From: Proteiniborus sp. DW1
GTDB lineage: Bacteria > Bacillota > Clostridia > Tissierellales > Proteiniboraceae
Length of the DNA: 64,000 nt
Assembly (NCBI RefSeq): GCF_900095305.1
Contig: NZ_FMDO01000017.1
Span: forward strand, 1 to 64,000
Direction of reading: 5' to 3'
Of this stretch, positions 53,010 through 64,000 are shown in pieces. How positions within the stretch are numbered: position 1 is the stretch's first letter; each line of letters starts with the position of its first letter. The position numbers and the translations under genes are program-made. The notes beneath the pieces were generated by a model, which saw nothing but the letters and a program-made list of their open reading frames with translations, did not search any database and was not told the origin of the DNA.

Positions 53010-53813
53010 ATGAAAGAAGGCAAAAGAGGTGTTCTCCTAATAATAGGGGGAGCAGAGGATAAGGAAGATAAAATGGAGATACTTAAGAAATTCGTTAGAC
53101 TTATGGAACACGATGATTCATCGCTTTTAGTATTGACTACAGCTACAAAAGAGCCAGATATAGTTGGAGACAATTATCGAAGAGTATTCGAAAAGCTAGG
53201 CATGACTAATATAGATATATTGAATATAGATAGCAGAGAAGATGCTAATGATGAAGATTATGTCGAGAAAATAAGAAGTTCGGAGGGAATTTTTTTCACA
53301 GGTGGAGACCAATTAAGAATTACCAGCATAATTGGTGGAACAAAAGCATGTGAGGCACTATTTGAATGTTATCAAAATGGTGGAATCATAGCAGGAACAA
53401 GTGCCGGGGCTTCTGCTATGAGTAGTGTTATGATAATTGAGGGAGATGGCAATGAGCCAGCACGAAAGTGTACTCTAAAAGTTGCTCCTGGTCTAAACCT
53501 ACTAAGCAATTCCATAATAGACCAGCATTTTGCTCAGAGAGGTAGAATTGGTCGATTACTTTGTGGTGTGGCAGAGAACCCAGATATTTTAGGTATTGGG
53601 ATAGATGAAGATACCTCAATAATTGTATATCCCGATGATACCTTTGAAGTATATGGAACAAATGCAGTAACTATAGTTGATGGCAGGTCTATAGAGGAGT
53701 CAAATGTATCTGAATCAAAACCAGATGAAATACTGGCAATTACAAATATAAGATTACATGTGCTGCCAGATGGCTATAGCTATGATTTGAAAAATAGAGA
53801 AGTTTTTAGATAG
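53010..53813 (+). CDS. cphB: Cyanophycinase
   Basis: The 267-residue serine peptidase (S51 family) has the nucleophile in GTSAGASAM (Ser131), FFTGGDQLR before it, and IIDQHFAQRGRIGRL after it. There is no signal peptide, so it acts in the cytoplasm, cutting cyanophycin to beta-aspartyl-arginine dipeptides. The ribosome site is CGGAGG. It is followed 43 bp later by the synthetase gene, so storage and breakdown are encoded together. Confidence 0.9.
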   Translation: MKEGKRGVLLIIGGAEDKEDKMEILKKFVRLMEHDDSSLLVLTTATKEPDIVGDNYRRVFEKLGMTNIDILNIDSREDANDEDYVEKIRSSEGIFFTGGDQLRITSIIGGTKACEALFECYQNGGIIAGTSAGASAMSSVMIIEGDGNEPARKCTLKVAPGLNLLSNSIIDQHFAQRGRIGRLLCGVAENPDILGIGIDEDTSIIVYPDDTFEVYGTNAVTIVDGRSIEESNVSESKPDEILAITNIRLHVLPDGYSYDLKNREVFR

Positions 53814-53856
53814 GCTAATCTTATGTTCATCAAGTTAAAGTTAGGAGGCAGAGCAA

Positions 53857-56490
53857 TTGAAAATCATAAGCATAAAAACATTTAATGGAAGAAACATATA
53901 TAGTCACAAGCCTGTAATTCACATGTTACTAGATCTTGAGGAGTTAAGCGGTAAAACTACATTAGATTTTATTGACTTTAATAATAGACTGTTAAGTCTT
54001 TTTCCTAATTTAATAGAACATCATTGTGGAATAGGAAAATTTGGCGGATTTGTTGAAAGGATTAAAGAAGGAACATATTTTGGTCATGTTGTTGAGCACT
54101 TAATATTAGAACTCCAAGTCATAGCAGGATATGAGGTGTTTTTCGGTAAGACAAGGGTTAAAGAAGCTCCTTATATATATAATATAGTAGCTGAATATGA
54201 AAATGAACAGGTAGCTATTGAATGTTCTAAACAAGCGGTTAATATTGTTGAGAGTATCATAAATGATGAGAATGTTGAACTGGATAAAATAATTGATCAT
54301 ATAAATAGAATTAAAGACCGATTTGAGCTAGGTCCAAGCTCAAAAGCTATTTTTTTAGAAGCTAGAAAAAGAGGAATACCAGTAAGAAGATTAGGAAATG
54401 ATAGCATTTTAGAACTTGGATACGGAAAATATTCAAGGCTAGTTCAAGCTGCTCTAACTGACTCTACAAGTGGAATATCTATAGATATTGCATGTAATAA
54501 ACAGATAACTAAACAGCTTCTCATGGAAAATAATATTCCAATACCTCATGGAGATGTGGCTAATACAGTAGATGAAGCACTAGATATAGCTAGGTTTATT
54601 GGATATCCAGTTGTATTAAAGCCTCTAGATGGGAATCAGGGTAAAGGTGTTGTTCTGAATATCAATTCACCAGAAGAGCTAGAAGATAACTATCATATAT
54701 CTGCAAAACATAGTAGAAGTGTACTAGTAGAAAGATATATAAAGGGCAGAGACTATAGAGTATTAGTAGTTAATGATAAGGTATGTGCGGTTGCAGAAAG
54801 GAGAGCCCCAGAGGTTGTTGGAGATGGGATACATACTATTAGAGAACTAGTTGATATAGAAAATAAAAGTGATTTAAGAGGTTATGGTCATGAGAAGCCT
54901 CAAACTAAAATAAAGCTTGACAATGTAGCTTTAAATTATTTGGGAAAAAATAATCTAACAGAGTTTTCAATTCCTCAAGCAGGGCAAGTAGTCAGGCTAA
55001 GGGAAAATGGAAATATAAGCACAGGTGGAAGTGCCATAGAATGTACTAAGCTTATACATCCCGATAATGCAAAGCTTGCTGTAGCTGCTGCAAAAGTGAT
55101 TGGACTAGATATTGCAGGAATTGACATGGCCACTGAAGACATATCAAAGCCTATCACCCAGTGTGGCGGTGCGATAATAGAAGTTAATGCTGTTCCAGGA
55201 CTACGTATGCACTTATATCCAACAATAGGTAATAGTATAAATGTTGCTTCTGATATATTAGATTTTTTTTATCCGAAGGGAACTCCTTATTCTGTACCTA
55301 TTGTTGCTATCACAGGAACTAATGGCAAGACTACAACTACAAGATTAATTAGTCATTCTCTTTCACTATCTGGAAACAAAGTTGGAATGACAACTTCAAG
55401 TGGAATTTATATCAATAATAAATGTATATTAGAAGGAGATAATACAGGACCATTAAGCACAAGAAATATTTTAAGCTCTAAAGAGATAGATGTTGCAGTA
55501 CTTGAGGTAGCAAGAGGAGGGATAGTTAGAAAAGGATTAGGTTATGATTTAGCGGATGTTGGACTCGTTACTAATATTGGGGATGATCATATTGGACTTG
55601 ATGGCATAGAAAGTATTGAGGATTTGGCCTTTGCAAAGTCTCTGGTTCTAGAAGCAGTAAAGTCTGATGGATATTCTATAATAAATGCTGATGATAAAAT
55701 GGCTGAGTATTTAATTGATAGGGCAAGTGGTAATATAATTCTATTTTCTAAAACACATGAGAATGCAATTCTTGTTAAACATATAAATGAAGGCAAGATA
55801 GGACTATTTATAGAAAATGGCAATATATATATATTTGATAACTTTGAAAAAACGAAGCTTATTGATTTAAATAGTATTCCAATAACATTCAATGGTATAC
55901 TAGAGTGTAATATTGAGAATGTGTTAGCAGCTTCAAGTGTACTATATGGTTTAGGTGAGTCTCTCTCTGCTATTAGAAAAGGATTGAATACATTTAAGTC
56001 TGATTTAAGTATGAATCCAGGTAGATTTAATATTTTTGACTTAGAAAATATAAAAGTAATGATAGACTATGGGCATAATATTGGAGGATATGAAGAGGTT
56101 GGTAAGTTTATAAGTAAACTAAGTGTTCTAAGAGCGGTGGGCGTCATAGGAGTACCTGGTGATAGGACTGATGAACAGATTTATAATATTGGAGTAAAGT
56201 GTGCTGAAATTTTTTCAAAGGTATATATAAAGGAAGATAGTGATTTGAGAGGAAGAGCACCAGGAGAAGTAGCCAATATACTGTATAATGGACTAGTAAG
56301 TGCCAACTATAACCCTGATAACATTAAGATTATTTTATCAGAGGTAGATGCACTAAGAACTGCAATTTCTGAAGCAAAGAATGGAGATTTCATAACATTT
56401 TTCTATGAGGAACTTGATCCTGCTATAGATTTAGTCAATGAGCTACAAAAAGAGCAAATAAATAAAAGTAGCATGGCTCTTATTTCATGA
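53857..56490 (+). CDS. cphA: Cyanophycin synthetase
   Basis: The 877-residue enzyme has an N-terminal domain of about 160 residues, an ATP-grasp domain (about 215-470, with VVLKPLDGNQGKGV) and a C-terminal Mur-ligase domain (about 480-870) with GTNGKTTTTR (from residue 487). It builds the multi-L-arginyl-poly-aspartate nitrogen reserve. The length is normal. Start is TTG after AGGAGG. Confidence 0.92.
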   Translation: MKIISIKTFNGRNIYSHKPVIHMLLDLEELSGKTTLDFIDFNNRLLSLFPNLIEHHCGIGKFGGFVERIKEGTYFGHVVEHLILELQVIAGYEVFFGKTRVKEAPYIYNIVAEYENEQVAIECSKQAVNIVESIINDENVELDKIIDHINRIKDRFELGPSSKAIFLEARKRGIPVRRLGNDSILELGYGKYSRLVQAALTDSTSGISIDIACNKQITKQLLMENNIPIPHGDVANTVDEALDIARFIGYPVVLKPLDGNQGKGVVLNINSPEELEDNYHISAKHSRSVLVERYIKGRDYRVLVVNDKVCAVAERRAPEVVGDGIHTIRELVDIENKSDLRGYGHEKPQTKIKLDNVALNYLGKNNLTEFSIPQAGQVVRLRENGNISTGGSAIECTKLIHPDNAKLAVAAAKVIGLDIAGIDMATEDISKPITQCGGAIIEVNAVPGLRMHLYPTIGNSINVASDILDFFYPKGTPYSVPIVAITGTNGKTTTTRLISHSLSLSGNKVGMTTSSGIYINNKCILEGDNTGPLSTRNILSSKEIDVAVLEVARGGIVRKGLGYDLADVGLVTNIGDDHIGLDGIESIEDLAFAKSLVLEAVKSDGYSIINADDKMAEYLIDRASGNIILFSKTHENAILVKHINEGKIGLFIENGNIYIFDNFEKTKLIDLNSIPITFNGILECNIENVLAASSVLYGLGESLSAIRKGLNTFKSDLSMNPGRFNIFDLENIKVMIDYGHNIGGYEEVGKFISKLSVLRAVGVIGVPGDRTDEQIYNIGVKCAEIFSKVYIKEDSDLRGRAPGEVANILYNGLVSANYNPDNIKIILSEVDALRTAISEAKNGDFITFFYEELDPAIDLVNELQKEQINKSSMALIS

Positions 56491-57438: not shown

Positions 57439-57831
57439 ATGATCAAAAACAACTATACCTTTGGAAAGCAAGTTGGCAGTTGGCATGCAGACAGAGCCCA
57501 GACAGTTACTTTTGTAGTAACAGATGACTGTAACTTAAGATGTAAGTACTGTTACATAACTCATAAGAAGTCTGACAACATCATGAGCTTTGATACAGCT
57601 AAAGATTTTATAGATCTTTTACTTACAACTGATGATATGAGATACTCAGAAGCTGTTATATTAGAATTCATAGGTGGAGAACCATTGATAGAAGCTAAGC
57701 TTATAGATAGAATAGCGGATTATTTTAAGATGAGGGCATTTGAACTAGATCACGATTGGTACTGGAACTATAGAATAAGTATATGTACCAATATTTGTAC
57801 ATGGAGAAAACGGACAAACCCTAAAAAATAG
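57439..57831 (+). pseudogene. Radical SAM maturase of CXXX-repeat peptides, N-terminal fragment
   Basis: The 130-codon frame starts after AAGGGGGAG. It contains the radical SAM cluster motif CNLRCKYC (Cys31, Cys35, Cys38) and the family stretch VILEFIGGEPLIEAKLID followed by YRISICTN, all as in maturases of CXXX-repeat peptides. After CTN the frame diverges (ICTWRKR) and stops at 57829. The rest of the radical SAM barrel and its auxiliary cluster domain are missing. The remaining 55-codon overlap with the next frame marks a deletion junction near 57785-57795. Confidence 0.8.
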
Positions 57832-58645
57832 AGAAGAATACACATCCTACGATATACTCCATATAATTCCCATAAGATATTATGATCAGGCAAAAAAACA
57901 AGGATTCAAGAGAATATTACCAGTATATGCTATAGAAGATGTTTGGAAAGAAAAGATATTTATAGACAATGTAATACTGAACGTAAAAGCAAATGAAATA
58001 AAAGAGTTAGGCAAAGCAGTAGATGAGTTAATAGAGTTTTCAAACAGAATCAATATAAATATAACGGAACTAGACAGGCATTTTAACGAAGAAGAATACA
58101 GACAACAAATGGAGAAGATAAGGGACAAAGTAATAAGGATATGGAAAGAAGAAGGGATATTGAAAGAGATAAATCTATTAACAGATATGTTACTTTTAGA
58201 CAAACACGATAACTGTCAAGCTGGAGTAAACACATTCGTTTTATCACCAGCAGGGAAAATATATACTTGCTGTGCAGAGTATTCAAGTAATGAAGATGGC
58301 TTTATTGGAGATATTAAAGAAGGCATAATAAAGGAATACGGTGCACGCTTACATAAAATTGAAAACAGCAATCTATGCAGAAACTGTGATGCTTACCAAT
58401 GCAAGAACTGTGTTTATATCAACAGAAAGAATACAAAAGAGTACAATGTATCACCATCATTCCAATGTAGGAAAAGCCATATAGAAAGAGCAGTTGCCTT
58501 AGATTTGAAAGATAAATTAAAGGACTGTGAAGTAATATCTAGTAAAAACGGATTAGATATAAAAGAGAAATATTTTTTAGACCCAATAGTAGAGTTTCTC
58601 AAGAGCAATAATGAGTTTAAAGGGTATTATAAGTACAAACGATAA
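57779..58645 (+). pseudogene. CXXX-repeat peptide maturase, C-terminal fragment
   Basis: The frame is open from 57779 to 58645 with no start codon before an internal ATG at 58109. It reads ILNVKANEIKELGKAVDELI, then NLLTDMLLL, CQAGVNTFVLSPAGKIYTCC and CRNCDAYQCKNCVYINRKNT. These are the hallmarks of the second (CXXX-repeat peptide) maturase, with SPASM-like cysteines. It lies in a different frame from the radical SAM fragment and lacks its N-terminal half. The two genes were most likely adjacent and joined by a deletion. A short protein from 58109 (178 residues) might still be made but has no ribosome site. Confidence 0.75.
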
Positions 58646-58772
58646 AAAGCTAGGGAATAGAGAATAAAGAGAAACTAAAGAAAAGTATGGGATGAGATAT
58701 CAAATTAGGTGATGGGTCTGAAGGGACTTTTCACAAATAAAAATATAATACAAATGGAAGGAGGGAAATAAA

Positions 58773-59024
58773 ATGAGTTATGTTAGTAAAATTAAGAAGG
58801 ATATAGTCAATAACCCTATTGAAACCATGGCTATATGTAGAGACTCTTGTCAAAGGGCTTGCGCTAAGAGGTGCAATGCTGTATGCATGGACACTTGCAA
58901 CAATGGGTGTGATAACAGGTGCACAGATACATGCGCCAGCAGATGTGGCTATACTTGCTCCACAAGTTGTGCTGAGCAATGTGTCATTGAAGTAGGGATG
59001 TGGGCAAATATCAATCTTCAATAA
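58773..59024 (+). CDS. CXXX-repeat precursor peptide 1
   Basis: The 83-residue peptide has a leader of about 21 residues (MSYVSKIKKDIVNNPIETMAI), then a core in which Cys recurs every fourth residue from Cys22 to Cys70: 13 cysteines without a gap. A 13-residue tail follows. The ribosome site is GGAGGG. Such peptides are substrates of radical SAM maturases, which form thioether links between cysteine sulfur and other residues. The core is intact, so the selected function is the repeat itself. Confidence 0.85.
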   Translation: MSYVSKIKKDIVNNPIETMAICRDSCQRACAKRCNAVCMDTCNNGCDNRCTDTCASRCGYTCSTSCAEQCVIEVGMWANINLQ

Positions 59025-59031
59025 TTTCTGA

Positions 59032-59072
59032 ATGTAGTATACCCAGCACAGGTTGGGTATACTATACATTTA
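59032..59072 (+). terminator. Hairpin after precursor peptide 1
   Basis: AGTATACCCA (59036-59045) pairs with TGGGTATACT (59054-59063), with extension on both sides and CATTTATTATA after it. It lies between the precursor and the downstream genes, as in many peptide operons where the precursor is made in excess. Confidence 0.75.
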
Positions 59073-59123
59073 TTATATAGCGAAATAAAAGAAGATAAAG
59101 ACTAATTTAAAGCAGGTGATTAC

Positions 59124-61373
59124 ATGAGGGAGCAGAAGAACAGGGTAATTATACTATCAGTAATACTAATAGCTATAATTGTAACTGGTATTTTACTTAC
59201 TAAGAACAATGAAGGCAAAGAGTCAAGTATCAAGTCTAACGAGGAACTAAAAACTGAAATAAATGAAAATCCAGATGTAACAACTGACGCATTTTACTAT
59301 GTTGAGGATTTTCTTGGAGAAGAGGAGTACAGACAGGGATTTAATAGACTTTTCAGATACCATGACCAAGTTGTAAAGTTTGCTGGCGATGACAAGGTCT
59401 ATCTAGAAGAATTAAAAAGCAAAGAGAATATCTATGAACTTCCATACGAAGATATGGAGTTAAGTGAATGGTATATTTGTCAGAATACTTTTTGGCATAT
59501 AAGATACGATAAAGAAAGTAACGCAGTAATAGTCAGTTCTTTTGATAGTGAGGGAAATGAAAAAGACAGAATAACATTAAAAGACTTTAAAGGGTATATT
59601 GATGACTATGGTGTATATGTTAAAAGTATGAAGATTACAAATGATTATATATATATTTTAACTTATGATGATGAACCCATATTTCAGATTTTTGACAAAA
59701 AAGGAGAACTAAAGAATTCATATAGAGATATAGTTAGTTATGATGCAGATAATAATGGACGTTTAATATATTCAAATACAACTGGATTTTACATGATTGA
59801 TTCAGAAACAGGTGATGAACTATTTGCAAATTCTAATTATAATGTAAACCCTATCAGATTTTCAGAAGATGGAAATTACATATATGGATTTGGCTCTGTA
59901 GTACCAGATCCTAGAATGATTAATGCATTTGATGCTAATAATGGTGAGTTTATAAGAGAAATATTTGATTTTAGAAAATATGCAACATATCTTCTAGATG
60001 ATTATATTGTACATGATTTTATAGTTGGAAAAGATGAAGAGATCTATTTGTCACTAATACCTAAAGATTTTGAAATGCAAGATTTAGCTTCAAGCTTTTC
60101 TTATTATTTATATACAAAGAGAGAAGGAGAGCGACCAAAAAGAGAAACAACTGTCATCCTAACAGCTCCTTACAGGTATGATTTTCTGGAAGAAGCTATA
60201 AAACTCTATGAGTTTAAATATCCCGAAGAGCATATAGAATACAACTATGCCTATAATACCTATGAAGCATTTCTTGAAAATACGAAAGAATATGGAGCTA
60301 AATTGGCTCTTGATATCATTTCAGGAGATGTAGGAGATATAGTTCAAACAGGAGGAGCAGGTATTGAATATCAAGATCTTTTAAGAACCGATGCCTTTAT
60401 GGATTTAACAGATTTAATTGTAAAAGATAAGAATTATCAATATCTGAATAAGAGTGTTTTAAATGGAATCAAAATAAATAATTCTATACAAGCTCTACCT
60501 ATTACTTACATATTTTATCAATATGAGTTAAACGAAGAGCTAGAAAAAGAGCTAGGACTTAATATAGATTTTAATAATATTTCTTGGTCAGAAATATTAG
60601 ATCTTGTAAAGGTAATAGAAGAGAAAGCACCAGATAGACATTTATTTACTCATCCAATAGAAGAAAAAACTCCATGGGATATTTTAGGGTATTATTTAAT
60701 CATAGTGAATATGCCAGATTTAGTTAATCTGGAAACAAAGGAAATTGATTTAAATCAGCAATGGTTTAAAGACCTCTTGATAAAATTTAAAGAATACTCT
60801 AAAAGTAAGAATTTTTTACTTATAGTGGAACCTGATCTTGTAGATAGATTACAGGGCTCATTACTAACTAGAGTAGATATTGGATATCGATTTTATTCAG
60901 ACGTACTAGCAAACTTCGTTAGGTATAACGAAAAATATAAGAGTAGAATGATACCAAGTTTTACAGGCGAGAAGAACGAAAATAGGATCGGACATAGTAA
61001 GAGAATGTTTTCAATCAATAACCGTTCAGAGAGAAAAGAAAATGCCTGGAAGTTTTTAAGTTTTCTACTTACAGAAGATATTCAGTTTCTTGTTTCAGAA
61101 GAGAGGTCAGGGACACCGATTAGCCAAAAAGGAGTGGAAAGAATGATAGAATATGATGCTTGGATGCACGATCGTTCAGGAGATGAAGATAATGTAGACA
61201 AGTTCAATAAATCAACAATAGAGAATTCTCAAAAGATTAATTATCTGTATGATATGGGTTATATAAGACAAGACCTTATAGATGCTATCAAATTATATAT
61301 GGATGATGAAATGACTCTTGATGAAGCACTTAAAAAGGCAGAGGAGAGTATAATGATTAGGTTAAATGAGTAA
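59124..61373 (+). CDS. Fusion of a propeller-like domain and an extracellular solute-binding domain
   Basis: The 749-residue protein has one N-terminal membrane helix (about 8-25) without a lipobox cysteine. About residues 50-340 are repeats of the type 'FDKKGELKNSYRDI' and 'DSETGDELF', a beta-propeller-like series. About residues 345-740 resemble a family 1 extracellular solute-binding protein (TTVILTAPYRYDFLEEAIKLYE, DIISGDVGDIVQTGGAG, RKENAWKFLSFLL). It may bind the mature peptide or a sugar outside the cell. It follows precursor 1 and precedes the small protein and precursor 2. Confidence 0.7.
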   Translation: MREQKNRVIILSVILIAIIVTGILLTKNNEGKESSIKSNEELKTEINENPDVTTDAFYYVEDFLGEEEYRQGFNRLFRYHDQVVKFAGDDKVYLEELKSKENIYELPYEDMELSEWYICQNTFWHIRYDKESNAVIVSSFDSEGNEKDRITLKDFKGYIDDYGVYVKSMKITNDYIYILTYDDEPIFQIFDKKGELKNSYRDIVSYDADNNGRLIYSNTTGFYMIDSETGDELFANSNYNVNPIRFSEDGNYIYGFGSVVPDPRMINAFDANNGEFIREIFDFRKYATYLLDDYIVHDFIVGKDEEIYLSLIPKDFEMQDLASSFSYYLYTKREGERPKRETTVILTAPYRYDFLEEAIKLYEFKYPEEHIEYNYAYNTYEAFLENTKEYGAKLALDIISGDVGDIVQTGGAGIEYQDLLRTDAFMDLTDLIVKDKNYQYLNKSVLNGIKINNSIQALPITYIFYQYELNEELEKELGLNIDFNNISWSEILDLVKVIEEKAPDRHLFTHPIEEKTPWDILGYYLIIVNMPDLVNLETKEIDLNQQWFKDLLIKFKEYSKSKNFLLIVEPDLVDRLQGSLLTRVDIGYRFYSDVLANFVRYNEKYKSRMIPSFTGEKNENRIGHSKRMFSINNRSERKENAWKFLSFLLTEDIQFLVSEERSGTPISQKGVERMIEYDAWMHDRSGDEDNVDKFNKSTIENSQKINYLYDMGYIRQDLIDAIKLYMDDEMTLDEALKKAEESIMIRLNE

Positions 61374-61449
61374 GGAGAAAATAGCTATTAATTTAAAGAG
61401 AAAATGTTAACTGACTATATTCAATAAAAAGAAAGGAAGGAAGGATAAA

Positions 61450-61713
61450 ATGACGACTAAAGAAGTATGGCAATTAAATGACGAGGAATTTAAAGAAATA
61501 GAAGACTTGTTTGAAAAGAAAATAGCACTTGAAAACCTTAGTAAAATAATTGATGCAGATAACCAGAAGCTTTATGACAAGCTAATAAAAGACTATGGGA
61601 AGACAGTTCATGAGTTTAATTCTTGGTGGGACAAAATGGCAAAGAAGTATAGTTGGGAAGGTAAGAATTGGTGGTTAGATTTTGAAACAAAGAAGATAAT
61701 GACTAATCAATAA
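61450..61713 (+). CDS. Small CXXX-repeat peptide modification-associated protein
   Basis: The 87-residue protein is acidic and helical at its N-terminus (NDEEFKEIEDLFEKKIALENL) and ends with a tryptophan-rich segment, WWDKMAKKYSWEGKNWWLDF. Small proteins of this length and pattern accompany CXXX-repeat peptide loci as 'modification system proteins'. It lies 10 bp before the second precursor, with AAGGAAGGAAGG upstream. Its role may be to escort the precursor; this is not established. Confidence 0.6.
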   Translation: MTTKEVWQLNDEEFKEIEDLFEKKIALENLSKIIDADNQKLYDKLIKDYGKTVHEFNSWWDKMAKKYSWEGKNWWLDFETKKIMTNQ

Positions 61714-61726
61714 GGAGGAAGGGATG

Positions 61727-61936
61727 ATGTCTTATAAGAACAAAGTGTTTAAAAACGCTTTAGAAAATTCAATGTCAACTCTGAGTTGTATTGCCTGTGC
61801 AGCAACTTGTTCTATAAATTGTGCAGTTGGTTGTGGTTTCACATGTGGTCACGAATGTAGTGGGACTTGTTCTTCAGATTGTGCAGATGGATGTAGAAAT
61901 GGAGTTGGCATAAATGCAATGAATAATTTCAAATAA
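61727..61936 (+). CDS. CXXX-repeat precursor peptide 2
   Basis: The 69-residue peptide starts MSYKNKVFKN, like precursor 1 (MSYVSKIKKD), which favours ATG 61727 over 61724. The core has ten cysteines at 21, 24, 28 and then every fourth residue to 56. The first gap is CxxC and the rest are CxxxC. A tail of 13 residues follows. It is a paralogue of precursor 1 with different spacers and a different C-terminus. Confidence 0.85.
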   Translation: MSYKNKVFKNALENSMSTLSCIACAATCSINCAVGCGFTCGHECSGTCSSDCADGCRNGVGINAMNNFK

Positions 61937-61948
61937 TTCCTGAACAGT

Positions 61949-61985
61949 GCTTGCCTAATTTGTGTTAACAGGTTAGGCAAGCTTA
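61949..61985 (+). terminator. Hairpin after precursor peptide 2
   Basis: GCTTGCCTAA (61949-61958) and TTAGGCAAGC (61973-61982) form a perfect 10-bp stem with a 14-base loop. The T run after it is weak, so partial read-through into the exporter gene is likely. Confidence 0.65.
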
Positions 61986-62030
61986 TGTCCGCTTGTAGTT
62001 AGTCAAATAAACCTGGGAAGTGATTTGAAA

Positions 62031-63803
62031 ATGCATACAAGTAAAACTGACAAAGAAAAATTAAATTGGTTTTTTAAAAGATACATTTATACAGGAAAGA
62101 AATATTTAGTTTTAATTATAGGGCTAATATTTGTGGGCTCCTTAGTGGCAAATATAAGCCCATATTTATATGGTAAAATGCTAGACAGCATTACATTAGG
62201 AGATATGGATTTGTTGATTAAACTTATTATAGCTTACTTTTTTATTACATTGTTTACAAATTTATTGAGTATGGTTGAGAGTTATGTAGGGCAAGTAGCT
62301 AATTTCAAGTTATCCAAAAATGCACAAATAGAATTATTTGACAAGATGATAAGATTGAGGACCTGTGAATATAGTAAATATGAGGTTGGAGAGTTAATAT
62401 CTCGCTTAAACGGAGATACTGATAGCATAGTTTCATTTGGAATCAATCTAATCACAAGCATCCTCCATATAGTAGTTAATATAATAGTCTCTGTGTATTT
62501 TGTGATGACTATCTCCATTCGTCTATCCTCTGTGGCAATATTTTATATGCCTACAACTTTTTTAGTCACATATTTTGCTCGGAAATATTTCAAAGAACTA
62601 GCTGAAAAGAGGAAAAAATTTGGGGATAAATATTTTAGTTTTCAAAATGAAGTTTTTTCAAATAATACAGGAATTAAAAGTTTTCAGTTAGAAAATAAAA
62701 TGAATGATAAGTATAAAGACTTTATTAATAAAGAATTTAGCCTCTTGAAAAACTCCATATACTTAGGAAACAACATGCAATTAATCAATAGTTTAGTCAC
62801 TGTGATTTCATCCTTATATATAATATATTTATCAGCTGTATTGATAAATGATGGAATGCTGACAGTAGGATTGATGGTATCTTTTAACACCTATATAAAT
62901 AAACTGTTTTCATCTATATCACAAGTATTTAGTATAAATATCAGCTTACAGGAGATTATTGTATCTCTAAATAGGATTTTAAAAGTAATGGGTGAAGATT
63001 CTGAAATAGATAGTAAAACAAACTTTGAAAAGCCAGATAGTTTTACTTTGGAGTGTACAGATATTACATTTTCATATGAAGAAGAAAATGAAAATGTTCT
63101 AAACAACATGGATATTTCCATTGATAAAATTGGCTTATATAGTATTGTAGGCTCAAATGGATGTGGTAAGAGTACATTTGCAAAACTATTGGTAAAACTA
63201 TATGACGTAAAAAAGGGGAACATTTGCATAAATGGTGTAGATTTTTCTCATCTTTCATATGACTTTATTAGAAGATATATAACTTATGTCCAAAAAGAGG
63301 AGTTTTTCTTTAATGATACAATCATAAATAATGTAAGATTGGCAGATGAATCCTTAAAAGAAGAAGATATAGAGGATATGTGCAAGAGAGTTGGGCTAGA
63401 TGACTTTATAAAAACCTTGCCAGATGGATATAGCACAACTATAGGCGAAGGTGGTTCTGCACTGTCAAGCGGGCAAAAACAAAAGCTTAGTATAGTTAGA
63501 GCATTGCTTAGAGGAACGCCAATATATATCTTTGATGAAATCACAGCAAATCTTGATGGTAAAGCTGAAAAAGATGTTATGAAAATAATGAAGGAATACA
63601 GCAAAAAATCTATAATTATATTTATAAGTCACAAGATATCTTCTATCATAGACAGCGATAAAATATTTGTTTTTGCAGATGGTAAAGTTTCAGATAGTGG
63701 AAGTCATGAGTATTTGCTTAAGAATAGTCATATATATAAAGAGCTATTTGAAAATAAGGAGACAAGTATGAATTTGAGGGGAGTTGAACCGATTGGAGAA
63801 TAA
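62031..63803 (+). CDS. ABC exporter (fused permease and ATPase) of the CXXX peptide locus
   Basis: The 590-residue half-transporter has six membrane helices in the first 300 residues, then an ATPase with Walker A GSNGCGKST, Q-loop VQKEEFFFNDT, signature LSSGQKQKLSIVRALL, Walker B IYIFDEITANLD and H-loop ISHKISS. There is no N-terminal cysteine-protease domain, so leader removal would need another enzyme. It probably exports the peptides encoded next to it. The start is ATG 62031 (or TTG 62025, 6 bp earlier). Confidence 0.9.
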   Translation: MHTSKTDKEKLNWFFKRYIYTGKKYLVLIIGLIFVGSLVANISPYLYGKMLDSITLGDMDLLIKLIIAYFFITLFTNLLSMVESYVGQVANFKLSKNAQIELFDKMIRLRTCEYSKYEVGELISRLNGDTDSIVSFGINLITSILHIVVNIIVSVYFVMTISIRLSSVAIFYMPTTFLVTYFARKYFKELAEKRKKFGDKYFSFQNEVFSNNTGIKSFQLENKMNDKYKDFINKEFSLLKNSIYLGNNMQLINSLVTVISSLYIIYLSAVLINDGMLTVGLMVSFNTYINKLFSSISQVFSINISLQEIIVSLNRILKVMGEDSEIDSKTNFEKPDSFTLECTDITFSYEEENENVLNNMDISIDKIGLYSIVGSNGCGKSTFAKLLVKLYDVKKGNICINGVDFSHLSYDFIRRYITYVQKEEFFFNDTIINNVRLADESLKEEDIEDMCKRVGLDDFIKTLPDGYSTTIGEGGSALSSGQKQKLSIVRALLRGTPIYIFDEITANLDGKAEKDVMKIMKEYSKKSIIIFISHKISSIIDSDKIFVFADGKVSDSGSHEYLLKNSHIYKELFENKETSMNLRGVEPIGE

Positions 63804-64000
63804 AAGGAGCTACGGATGGTATTTTATTATTCCTGGGCTAATAGGAGTTTTAGTATTTTATGTAGTACCATTTTTCCTAAGCTTATATTATACCTTTACC
63901 AAGGGAATAACCGAAGTTCATTTTGTTGGACTTGAAAATTTCAGTGAGCTTTTTAAAAACCCTGCTTTTATACTGGCGACAAAAAATACCCTAAAATTTA
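63793..64000 (+). CDS. Sugar-type ABC transporter permease (partial, runs off the window)
   Basis: The frame from TTG 63793 overlaps the exporter stop by 11 bp, with GAGGGGAG about 9 bases upstream. It reads YGWYFIIPGLIGVLVFYVVP, LSLYYTFTKG and VGLENFSELFKNPAF, the start of MalF/UgpA-type permeases. The rest lies beyond the window. It would partner the solute-binding domain encoded at 59124-61373. Confidence 0.8.
   Translation, partial: MENKRSYGWYFIIPGLIGVLVFYVVPFFLSLYYTFTKGITEVHFVGLENFSELFKNPAFILATKNTLKF

What the first reader, a model, noticed from the sequence alone, without database searches (positions are those of the whole stretch)
57439..64000. CXXX-repeat RiPP locus with two precursors, an exporter and a linked uptake-type transporter
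The sequence shows two short genes (58773-59024 and 61727-61936) whose products share a leader start and carry 13 and 10 cysteines, nearly all exactly four residues apart. Around them lie radical SAM and CXXX-maturase fragments, the small W-rich protein, an ABC exporter and a sugar-type permease. From family knowledge, such cores are sactipeptide/ranthipeptide-like substrates. Pairing export genes with a solute-binding fusion and uptake permease in one operon is unusual and suggests a secreted product that is sensed or retrieved.
Basis: partly seen in the sequence, partly recalled or inferred. Interest (0 to 1): 0.85.

Follow-up and report, generated by a model that had tools for sequence, protein, structure and literature searches.

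The report
Cysteine-repeat peptide locus with paired transporter
A bacterial gene cluster for a secreted, cysteine-studded peptide has, in this assembly, a broken modifying enzyme but keeps an unusual transporter that may recognise the peptide outside the cell, and relatives of that transporter sometimes turn up beside other peptide clusters.

Summary
58773-59024 and 61727-61936 encode 13-Cys and 10-Cys CXXX-repeat precursors. The "fragments" at 57439-58645 are one radical-SAM/CXXX-maturase gene broken by a ~977-bp frameshifting deletion; no other copy was found in this assembly. The module is the known NCBIfam CXXX system (TIGR04115/04116/04119). The operon continues past the window: second permease, MacB-like membrane protein, MalK-type ATPase. 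The "sugar importer" is a branch of a hybrid cassette, SBP-MalF-MalG-MFP-MacB(-ATPase), found at many loci in Clostridia; here the MFP is reduced and fused to MalG and the SBP carries a beta-propeller. The propeller-SBP was found in 4 of 249 genomes of the order, each time at a CXXX locus or its remains. In G028 precursor and exporter are gone and the maturase is a remnant, while the transporter genes stay open. Related transporters sit beside two other Cys-rich radical-SAM RiPP systems at 6 of 31 other loci (5 within 10 kb; 0.4-0.7 expected). Best reading: a product-recognition module (self-protection and/or re-uptake). No experiment shows the substrate, and most relatives of the transporter stand without a RiPP maturase in the stretch read. 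New variant of a known kind.

The parts
57439..57831 (+). 5' part of broken CXXX radical-SAM maturase gene (keeps the CNLRCKYC cluster motif, stops after the deletion)
   Evidence: TIGR04115 positions 1-103, 134.5 bits; residues 1-118 88% identical to the T. pigra maturase
57772..57792 (.). deletion junction: these 21 bases align to both sides; about 977 bp (324 aa) missing compared with T. pigra, frame shifted
   Evidence: blastn of window against the L022 maturase gene
57793..58645 (+). 3' part of the same gene (CXXX_matur domain), in another frame; first start codon in this frame is at 58109
   Evidence: TIGR04119 166.7 bits over cut-off 150 for 58109-58645; open frame
58773..59024 (+). precursor A, 83 aa, 13 Cys every fourth residue
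   Evidence: T. pigra homologue 42% identical
59033..59066 (+). hairpin after precursor A (15 pairs), candidate terminator/attenuator
59124..61373 (+). 749-aa protein: N-terminal hydrophobic span without lipobox Cys, beta-propeller (about residues 50-340), SBP_bac_1 domain (about 345-749)
   Evidence: PF01547 39.1 bits; AlphaFold2 of residues 29-343 pLDDT 70, best VIA-align Z 16.7 to an NHL propeller
61450..61713 (+). TIGR04116 CXXX repeat peptide modification system protein, 87 aa
   Evidence: 69.3 bits, cut-off 50
61727..61936 (+). precursor B, 69 aa, 10 Cys
   Evidence: TIGR04118 20.9 bits, below cut-off 35
61949..61982 (+). hairpin after precursor B
   Evidence: 80-nt downstream fold -25.0 kcal/mol
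62025..63803 (+). ABC exporter, fused membrane and ATPase domains, no peptidase domain among its Pfam hits
   Evidence: PF00664 and PF00005
63784..64000 (+). start of MalF-type permease (283 aa; gene ends at contig position 64635)
   Evidence: PF00528 36.5 bits for the full protein; followed outside the window by MalG with MFP-like tail (64646-65887), MacB-related membrane protein (65862-66719) and MalK-type ATPase (66721-67818)

Best explanation
This is a CXXX-repeat radical-SAM RiPP locus of the NCBIfam TIGR04115/04116/04119 type. In intact relatives the radical-SAM/maturase protein with the small TIGR04116 protein modifies the Cys-repeat core (inferred from family names), and the ABC protein exports it (inferred). 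In this genome the maturase is disabled by a deletion, probably a recent one. The second transporter is a hybrid of a MalFG/SBP importer with MFP and MacB parts; it was joined once to this CXXX lineage and specialised there (propeller-SBP on a membrane anchor, MFP shrunk and fused to MalG). Most likely it recognises the mature secreted peptide, or what that peptide carries, at the cell surface and moves it, which protects producers from their own product and/or takes it back. That use does not need own production, which would explain why G028, and apparently this strain, keep it after losing the maker. Shown: anatomy, linkage, one lineage, presence without a working maker. Inferred: substrate, direction of transport, benefit.
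For: Propeller-SBP in 4 of 249 genomes of the order and 1 of 398 in a phylum sample, the own genome; all 4 at a CXXX locus or its remains. CXXX-linked permeases and maturases each form one supported clade. G028: maturase reduced to 65-bp and 90-bp matches, exporter to about 42 bp, precursor and TIGR04116 gene absent, transporter genes open, pairwise dN/dS 0.12-0.24 against T. pigra. In G016 SBP genes lie between precursors (precursor-SBP-precursor-SBP-precursor), and those two SBPs differ more in the propeller (80.5% identical) than in the SBP domain (94.7%). Related transporters lie beside CcpM or Clo7bot-like RiPP maturases at 6 of 31 other loci of the order; within 10 kb 5 seen, 0.38-0.68 expected; the RiPP label needs at least 6 gains or losses on the permease tree.
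Against: No call shows that the transporter binds the peptide. 10 of 12 genomes of the order with a CXXX maturase over the cut-off have no propeller-SBP, so it is not needed for making or exporting the product in general. At 25 of 31 related loci of the order, and 12 of 12 read elsewhere in the class, no RiPP maturase was seen in the stretch read, 8-20 kb; some stand beside genes that look like two-component systems. SBP relatives of known structure are named as carbohydrate binders. In G016's second CXXX locus the transporter is the part that decays. Loss after the maker may simply be incomplete: pairwise dN/dS cannot date retention.
Confidence: 0.5

Rival explanations
1. Self-immunity only: the cassette is a detoxifier that strips the antimicrobial peptide from the membrane and expels it (MacB/MFP logic), and non-producers keep it as orphan immunity. 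(A narrower form of the favoured reading.)
For: MFP and MacB-type parts in the family; some cassettes next to genes that look by eye like histidine kinases and response regulators; present without maker in G028.
Against: In the CXXX branch the MFP is down to a tail and the MacB periplasmic domain is missing in this genome and T. pigra; SBP plus MalFG plus MalK-type ATPase is an import architecture.
Confidence: 0.3
2. Uptake of something else: the cassette imports a saccharide or envelope component whose handling is co-regulated with the peptide; the peptide is not its substrate.
For: SBP_bac_1 domain; profile matches to CbpC and YesO; most cassette relatives read had no RiPP maturase nearby.
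Against: The propeller-SBP branch was found only at CXXX loci or remains, it lies between precursors in G016, and related transporters are paired with further radical-SAM RiPP families.
Confidence: 0.25
3. Metallophore cycle: a thiol-rich peptide is exported, binds metal and is retrieved by the transporter.
For: 10-13 regularly spaced Cys; exporter and importer in one operon.
Against: SBP family is carbohydrate-type; if the cysteines become thioethers they would not bind metal as thiols. Metal-related neighbours were not searched for; none was recognised by eye.
Confidence: 0.07
4. The maturase break is an assembly error and the locus is intact.
For: The C-terminal fragment shows pairwise dN/dS 0.09 against T. 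pigra, as for a gene under selection until very recently; draft assembly of 62 contigs.
Against: The junction lies inside an 87-kb contig, in a short stretch that fits both flanks, as expected of a real deletion; the missing piece was not found elsewhere in the assembly.
Confidence: 0.12

Closest known systems
NCBIfam CXXX-repeat peptide system (TIGR04115, TIGR04119, TIGR04116; precursor models TIGR04114/04117/04118)
   Same: Radical-SAM/maturase protein, small TIGR04116 protein, Cys-Xaa-Xaa-Xaa repeat precursors, ABC exporter
   Different: Maturase broken here; precursors below the curated precursor cut-offs; cores with 10 and 13 Cys; attached hybrid transporter
PapB-type ranthipeptides (freyrasin) and sactipeptides
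   Same: Second-best model for the 5' maturase fragment is PapB (68 bits, cut-off 340); Cys-dense core
   Different: Cross-link type and acceptor residues unknown; the CxxxD pattern of freyrasin (recalled) is absent; no chemistry tested
CUT1 sugar ABC importers (SBP_bac_1, MalF, MalG, MalK/MsmX; names recalled)
   Same: SBP_bac_1, two BPD_transp_1 permeases, ATPase with MalK OB and TOBE domains
   Different: SBP has a hydrophobic anchor without lipobox and a beta-propeller; MalG carries an MFP-like tail; a MacB-related membrane protein belongs to the operon
MacAB / YknWXYZ-type MFP plus MacB systems (function recalled)
   Same: In paralogous cassettes 4 of 6 MFP proteins tested pass an HlyD-type Pfam cut-off and 5 of 5 membrane partners pass MacB_PCD
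   Different: Combined with MalFG and SBP; MFP and PCD reduced in the CXXX branch; MalK-type ATPase where one is present
CcpM / CLI_3235 RiPP clusters (TIGR04068, TIGR04066, TIGR04065)
   Same: At three other loci a related SBP-MalFG transporter lies beside CcpM and TIGR04066 genes over their cut-offs (G090, G031, T. pigra C94)
   Different: Different maturase and precursor family; in G031 and T. pigra C94 MalF and MalG are fused and no MacB-like gene was seen

Membership tests
CXXX-repeat radical-SAM RiPP system | TIGR04115 radical-SAM maturase over cut-off | tested here: not met
   In the window only positions 1-103 of 359, 134.5 bits against 350; met at the homologous loci of T. pigra and G016
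CXXX-repeat radical-SAM RiPP system | TIGR04119 maturase domain over cut-off | tested here: met
   166.7 bits against 150, but in a truncated frame without the gene's own start
CXXX-repeat radical-SAM RiPP system | TIGR04116 protein | tested here: met
   69.3 bits against 50
CXXX-repeat radical-SAM RiPP system | Precursor with Cys every fourth residue | tested here: met
   13 and 10 Cys, spacing 4 but for one gap of 3; curated precursor models below cut-off
Sactipeptide / ranthipeptide | Cys thioether to alpha or non-alpha carbon of the core | not testable with these tools
   Needs mass spectrometry or NMR of the product
CUT1 sugar ABC importer | SBP_bac_1, two BPD_transp_1 permeases, MalK-type ATPase | tested here: met
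CUT1 sugar ABC importer | Saccharide is the transported substrate | not testable with these tools
   no binding data
MacAB-type tripartite exporter | Complete membrane fusion protein | tested here: not met
   Only a tail on MalG; 0 of 4 tails hit Pfam; blastp links it to the C-terminus of MFPs of paralogous cassettes
MacAB-type tripartite exporter | MacB periplasmic core domain | tested here: not met
   PF12704 not hit in the proteins of this genome and T. pigra; hit in the G028 and G016 homologues

The most novel reading that the evidence does not exclude
A Clostridia transporter family built from importer parts (SBP, MalF, MalG, MalK-type ATPase) and efflux parts (MFP, MacB) has been recruited several times as the product-recognition partner of Cys-rich radical-SAM RiPPs; in the CXXX branch the fast-diverging beta-propeller on the SBP reads the mature peptide, and non-producers keep the transporter to tolerate or exploit neighbours' peptide.
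Probability: 0.35. Interest if true: 0.8.

Novelty: new variant of a known kind. Interest (0 to 1): 0.6.

Why it matters
For many radical-SAM RiPPs of Clostridia the biological role and the immunity are unknown (general knowledge). A transporter that follows one RiPP lineage, lies between precursors, recurs beside other RiPP families and is found without the maker gives a concrete handle: bind the propeller-SBP to the mature peptide and delete the cassette. The MalFG/MFP/MacB hybrid is also a transporter architecture that one paper search (open-licence library only) did not find described.

Tried and rejected
AlphaFold2 of the whole SBP fusion with two sequences gave pLDDT 42, so only the propeller part is used; its Foldseek list served as a hint. 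Plasmid collection: no match to the SBP fusion. Pfam on four MalG tails: nothing. The only genome-contig scan returned one locus, T. pigra. Literature: 'CXXX repeat' with 'radical SAM' 0 papers; TIGR04114-04119 accessions 0 papers; MalG/MacB/MacA/MsmX combination 0 papers; broader searches gave listings in which nothing on the CXXX system was recognised; CLI_3235 terms gave two Paenibacillus papers. These were seen as listings only; PMC13289728 and PMC8326336 were seen as passages, with 0 occurrences of 'CXXX'.

Dropped ideas: that a long SBP is peculiar to CXXX loci (SBPs of about 700-870 aa occur in paralogous cassettes); that the transporter is essential to the system (10 of 12 makers lack it). 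The chance estimate uses gene counts read by hand, was made after the pattern was seen, and assumes an even spread of genes. Of the 52 rows I left out 16 (at or below 109 bits, taken as ordinary MalF) and the 5 of the CXXX clade, which leaves 31. The exporter tree holds doubtful unlinked rows (one of 237 aa, one cut).
Full report
Observation. The two Cys-repeat genes are real and far from chance. pepA has 13 Cys with all gaps of 4, pepB has 10 with one gap of 3 and eight of 4; 0 and 2 of 100000 core shuffles reach the observed CxxxC counts. Both leaders start MSYxxK. Family searches place the neighbours: TIGR04115 fragment, TIGR04119 fragment, TIGR04116 protein, ABC exporter, SBP_bac_1 fusion, MalF-type permease.

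The maturase is broken. Intact homologues are single proteins of about 710-750 aa carrying both parts. Against the T. pigra gene, window 57439-57792 aligns to its start up to base 354 and window 57772 onward to base 1311 onward: about 977 bp (324 aa) are missing, the frame is shifted, and 21 bases at the junction fit both sides. The 3' frame has no start codon before 58109. No TIGR04115 match over the cut-off exists in the 62-contig assembly. Pairwise dN/dS of the 3' fragment against T. pigra is 0.09, which fits a recent break; an assembly error cannot be excluded without reads.

Beyond the window. The operon goes on: MalF 283 aa, MalG 413 aa with an extra hydrophobic span and tail, a 285-aa protein with four hydrophobic spans, and a 365-aa ATPase with MalK OB and TOBE domains. 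The 285-aa protein belongs with MacB_PCD proteins: its G016 homologue scores 62.6 and G028's 38.4 bits (cut-off 27), but this genome and T. pigra lack the stretch that carries that domain. The MalG tail has no Pfam hit (0 of 4) but matches the C-terminus of MFPs in paralogous cassettes (blastp against three MFPs, best E 9e-08).

The SBP fusion. It has one hydrophobic span at residues 8-26 and a single Cys, which lies elsewhere, so no lipobox. AlphaFold2 of residues 29-343 (two sequences) gives pLDDT 70 and pTM 0.72; the solved structures it matches best are beta-propellers (NHL and WIPI-type, best Z 16.7). The C-terminal part matches SBP_bac_1 and, by profile, CbpC (9e-17) and YesO (2e-09).

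Distribution. With a profile of six fusions, 4 of 249 genomes of the order have it (G000, G016 with three copies, G028, G061) and 1 of 398 in a phylum sample, the own genome. The TIGR04115 maturase is over its cut-off in 12 of 249 genomes; of these only G016 and G061 also have the fusion. TIGR04116 was found in 7 of 391 genomes of the class. None of the CXXX loci read in other genomes had this transporter (some stretches short). Against a clean contrast: in G1007 an ordinary-looking SBP-MalG-MalF set, 25-27% identical, lies on the opposite strand beside the CXXX exporter, and in G381 broken SBP-like ORFs lie near the precursor; the G1007 permeases fall far from the cassette family.

Linked loci. 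T. pigra: maturase, precursor, TIGR04116, SBP, exporter, MalF, MalG, MacB-related, ATPase. G016 locus a: maturase, TIGR04116, then precursor-SBP-precursor-SBP-precursor, exporter and the full transporter. G016 locus c: maker complete, MalG and MacB-related genes decayed. G028: SBP, MalF, MalG, MacB-related and ATPase genes open; maturase left as 65-bp and 90-bp matches, exporter as about 42 bp, no precursor, no TIGR04116 gene; the contig ends just upstream. In the trees of permeases and of the maturase C-terminal part the linked loci form one supported clade. A hairpin follows each of 7 of 7 linked precursors (-21.8 to -29.0 kcal/mol in 80 nt, no shuffle control).

What the transporter is. A profile of the four MalG proteins hit 46 of 291 class genomes at E<=1e-30, many by ordinary MalG. 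Of 14 such loci fetched (2 own), 13 show MalF-MalG-MFP-MacB by blastp and one is cut by its contig end; 20 of 20 loci fetched with the own C44 paralogue's MalF show it too. Of 9 weaker relatives, one shows all four, three have MalF, MalG and MFP with an unassigned membrane ORF, and five have MalF and MalG fused, one with a 138-aa MFP-like piece and four without MFP or MacB. Pfam supports the MFP in 4 of 6 and MacB_PCD in 5 of 5 proteins tested. So the window's transporter is one branch of a broader class.

Pairing with other RiPPs. In the order I read 31 related loci outside the CXXX clade (20, 9, 2 own). Five have a radical-SAM RiPP maturase within 10 kb of MalF: G000 C44 (Clo7bot-like, 285 bits, cut-off 600, with a 7-Cys peptide and an exporter), G009 (Clo7bot-like, 262 bits), G090 (CcpM 611 bits; TIGR04066 and TIGR04065 over cut-off), G031 (CcpM 545; TIGR04066 over cut-off) and T. 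pigra C94 (CcpM 566; TIGR04066 over cut-off). G031 and T. pigra C94 have the fused MalFG form. A sixth, G018 C49, has CcpM-like and TIGR04066-like genes joined to a full cassette by about ten SBP genes on the same strand (TIGR04066 170 bits, cut-off 200; otherwise blastp). Expected within 10 kb: 0.38 to 0.68, Poisson P 5e-05 to 7e-04 for the five (rough, post hoc). The RiPP label, with G018 still counted as unlinked, needs at least 6 gains or losses on the permease tree. Against: at 25 of 31 no RiPP maturase was seen (judged by a CxxxCxxC motif in long ORFs and blastp within 8-20 kb; three stretches hold radical-SAM-motif ORFs that read like RNA-modifying enzymes), and none at 12 class-level loci outside the order. 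From the other side, of 18 TIGR04066 matches with E up to 1.4e-20 in 69 genomes, 3 have the transporter; 12 of the 18 surroundings were read, some short, and 6 were judged only by the contigs listed.

Mechanism. I favour product recognition at the surface: the exporter releases the modified peptide, the propeller-SBP on its anchor binds it, and MalFG with the MalK-type ATPase moves it. The propeller is less conserved than the SBP domain in 15 of 15 pairs (for instance 80.5 against 94.7% in the G016 tandem copies), as a specificity face would be, though weaker constraint would look the same. Whether the benefit is immunity, re-uptake or sensing cannot be told here. SCIFF ranthipeptides are listed as acting in quorum sensing in clostridia (Chen et al. 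2020, as cited in passages of PMC8326336).

Verdict. A known RiPP kind, broken here, with a clade-specific and unusual transporter whose wider pairing with RiPPs is the interesting part. Interest 0.6.

Noticed in passing
G000:C44 148224-162861 (L051, L052): Second radical-SAM RiPP cluster of the own genome: Clo7bot-like maturase, 67-aa 7-Cys peptide, an ABC ATPase whose best model is lantibiotic protection (190 bits, below cut-off), ABC exporter, then the hybrid SBP-MalF-MalG-MFP-MacB-ATPase cassette, all on one strand.
   Followed up: partly
L060 and L087 (G018:C49, about 1-30 kb): About ten SBP genes in tandem between a CcpM-like RiPP cluster and a MalF-MalG-MFP-MacB cassette.
   Followed up: no
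G000:C28 (L038 5404-15637): Third hybrid cassette of the own genome, preceded by genes that look by eye like a response regulator and a histidine kinase; similar arrangement in the same-genus genome G001 (L073).
   Followed up: no
window 53010-56490: Two genes just upstream read like cyanophycinase and cyanophycin synthetase (recognised from memory, no family call).
   Followed up: no
L027, L053, L055 (genomes of family f4): CXXX loci whose precursor ORFs have only four Cys and a shared NAAxHP tail, unlike the long repeats.
   Followed up: no
L025, L030, L031, L034, L035: CXXX loci with a gene next to the maturase that reads like a subtilase (tested for L035 only: PF00082, 55.7 bits) and a different leader type; candidate leader peptidase.
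   Followed up: no
L079 and L080: Closely related MalF parts (about 0.1 changes per site apart) in T. pigra C94, beside CcpM genes, and in G002, where no radical-SAM-motif ORF over 250 aa was seen in 20 kb: another transporter with and without maker.
   Followed up: no
L037 435-4060 (G1007): An SBP-MalG-MalF set only 25-27% identical to the window's lies on the opposite strand beside a CXXX exporter and maturase; it may be an ordinary sugar importer or an independent pairing.
   Followed up: no
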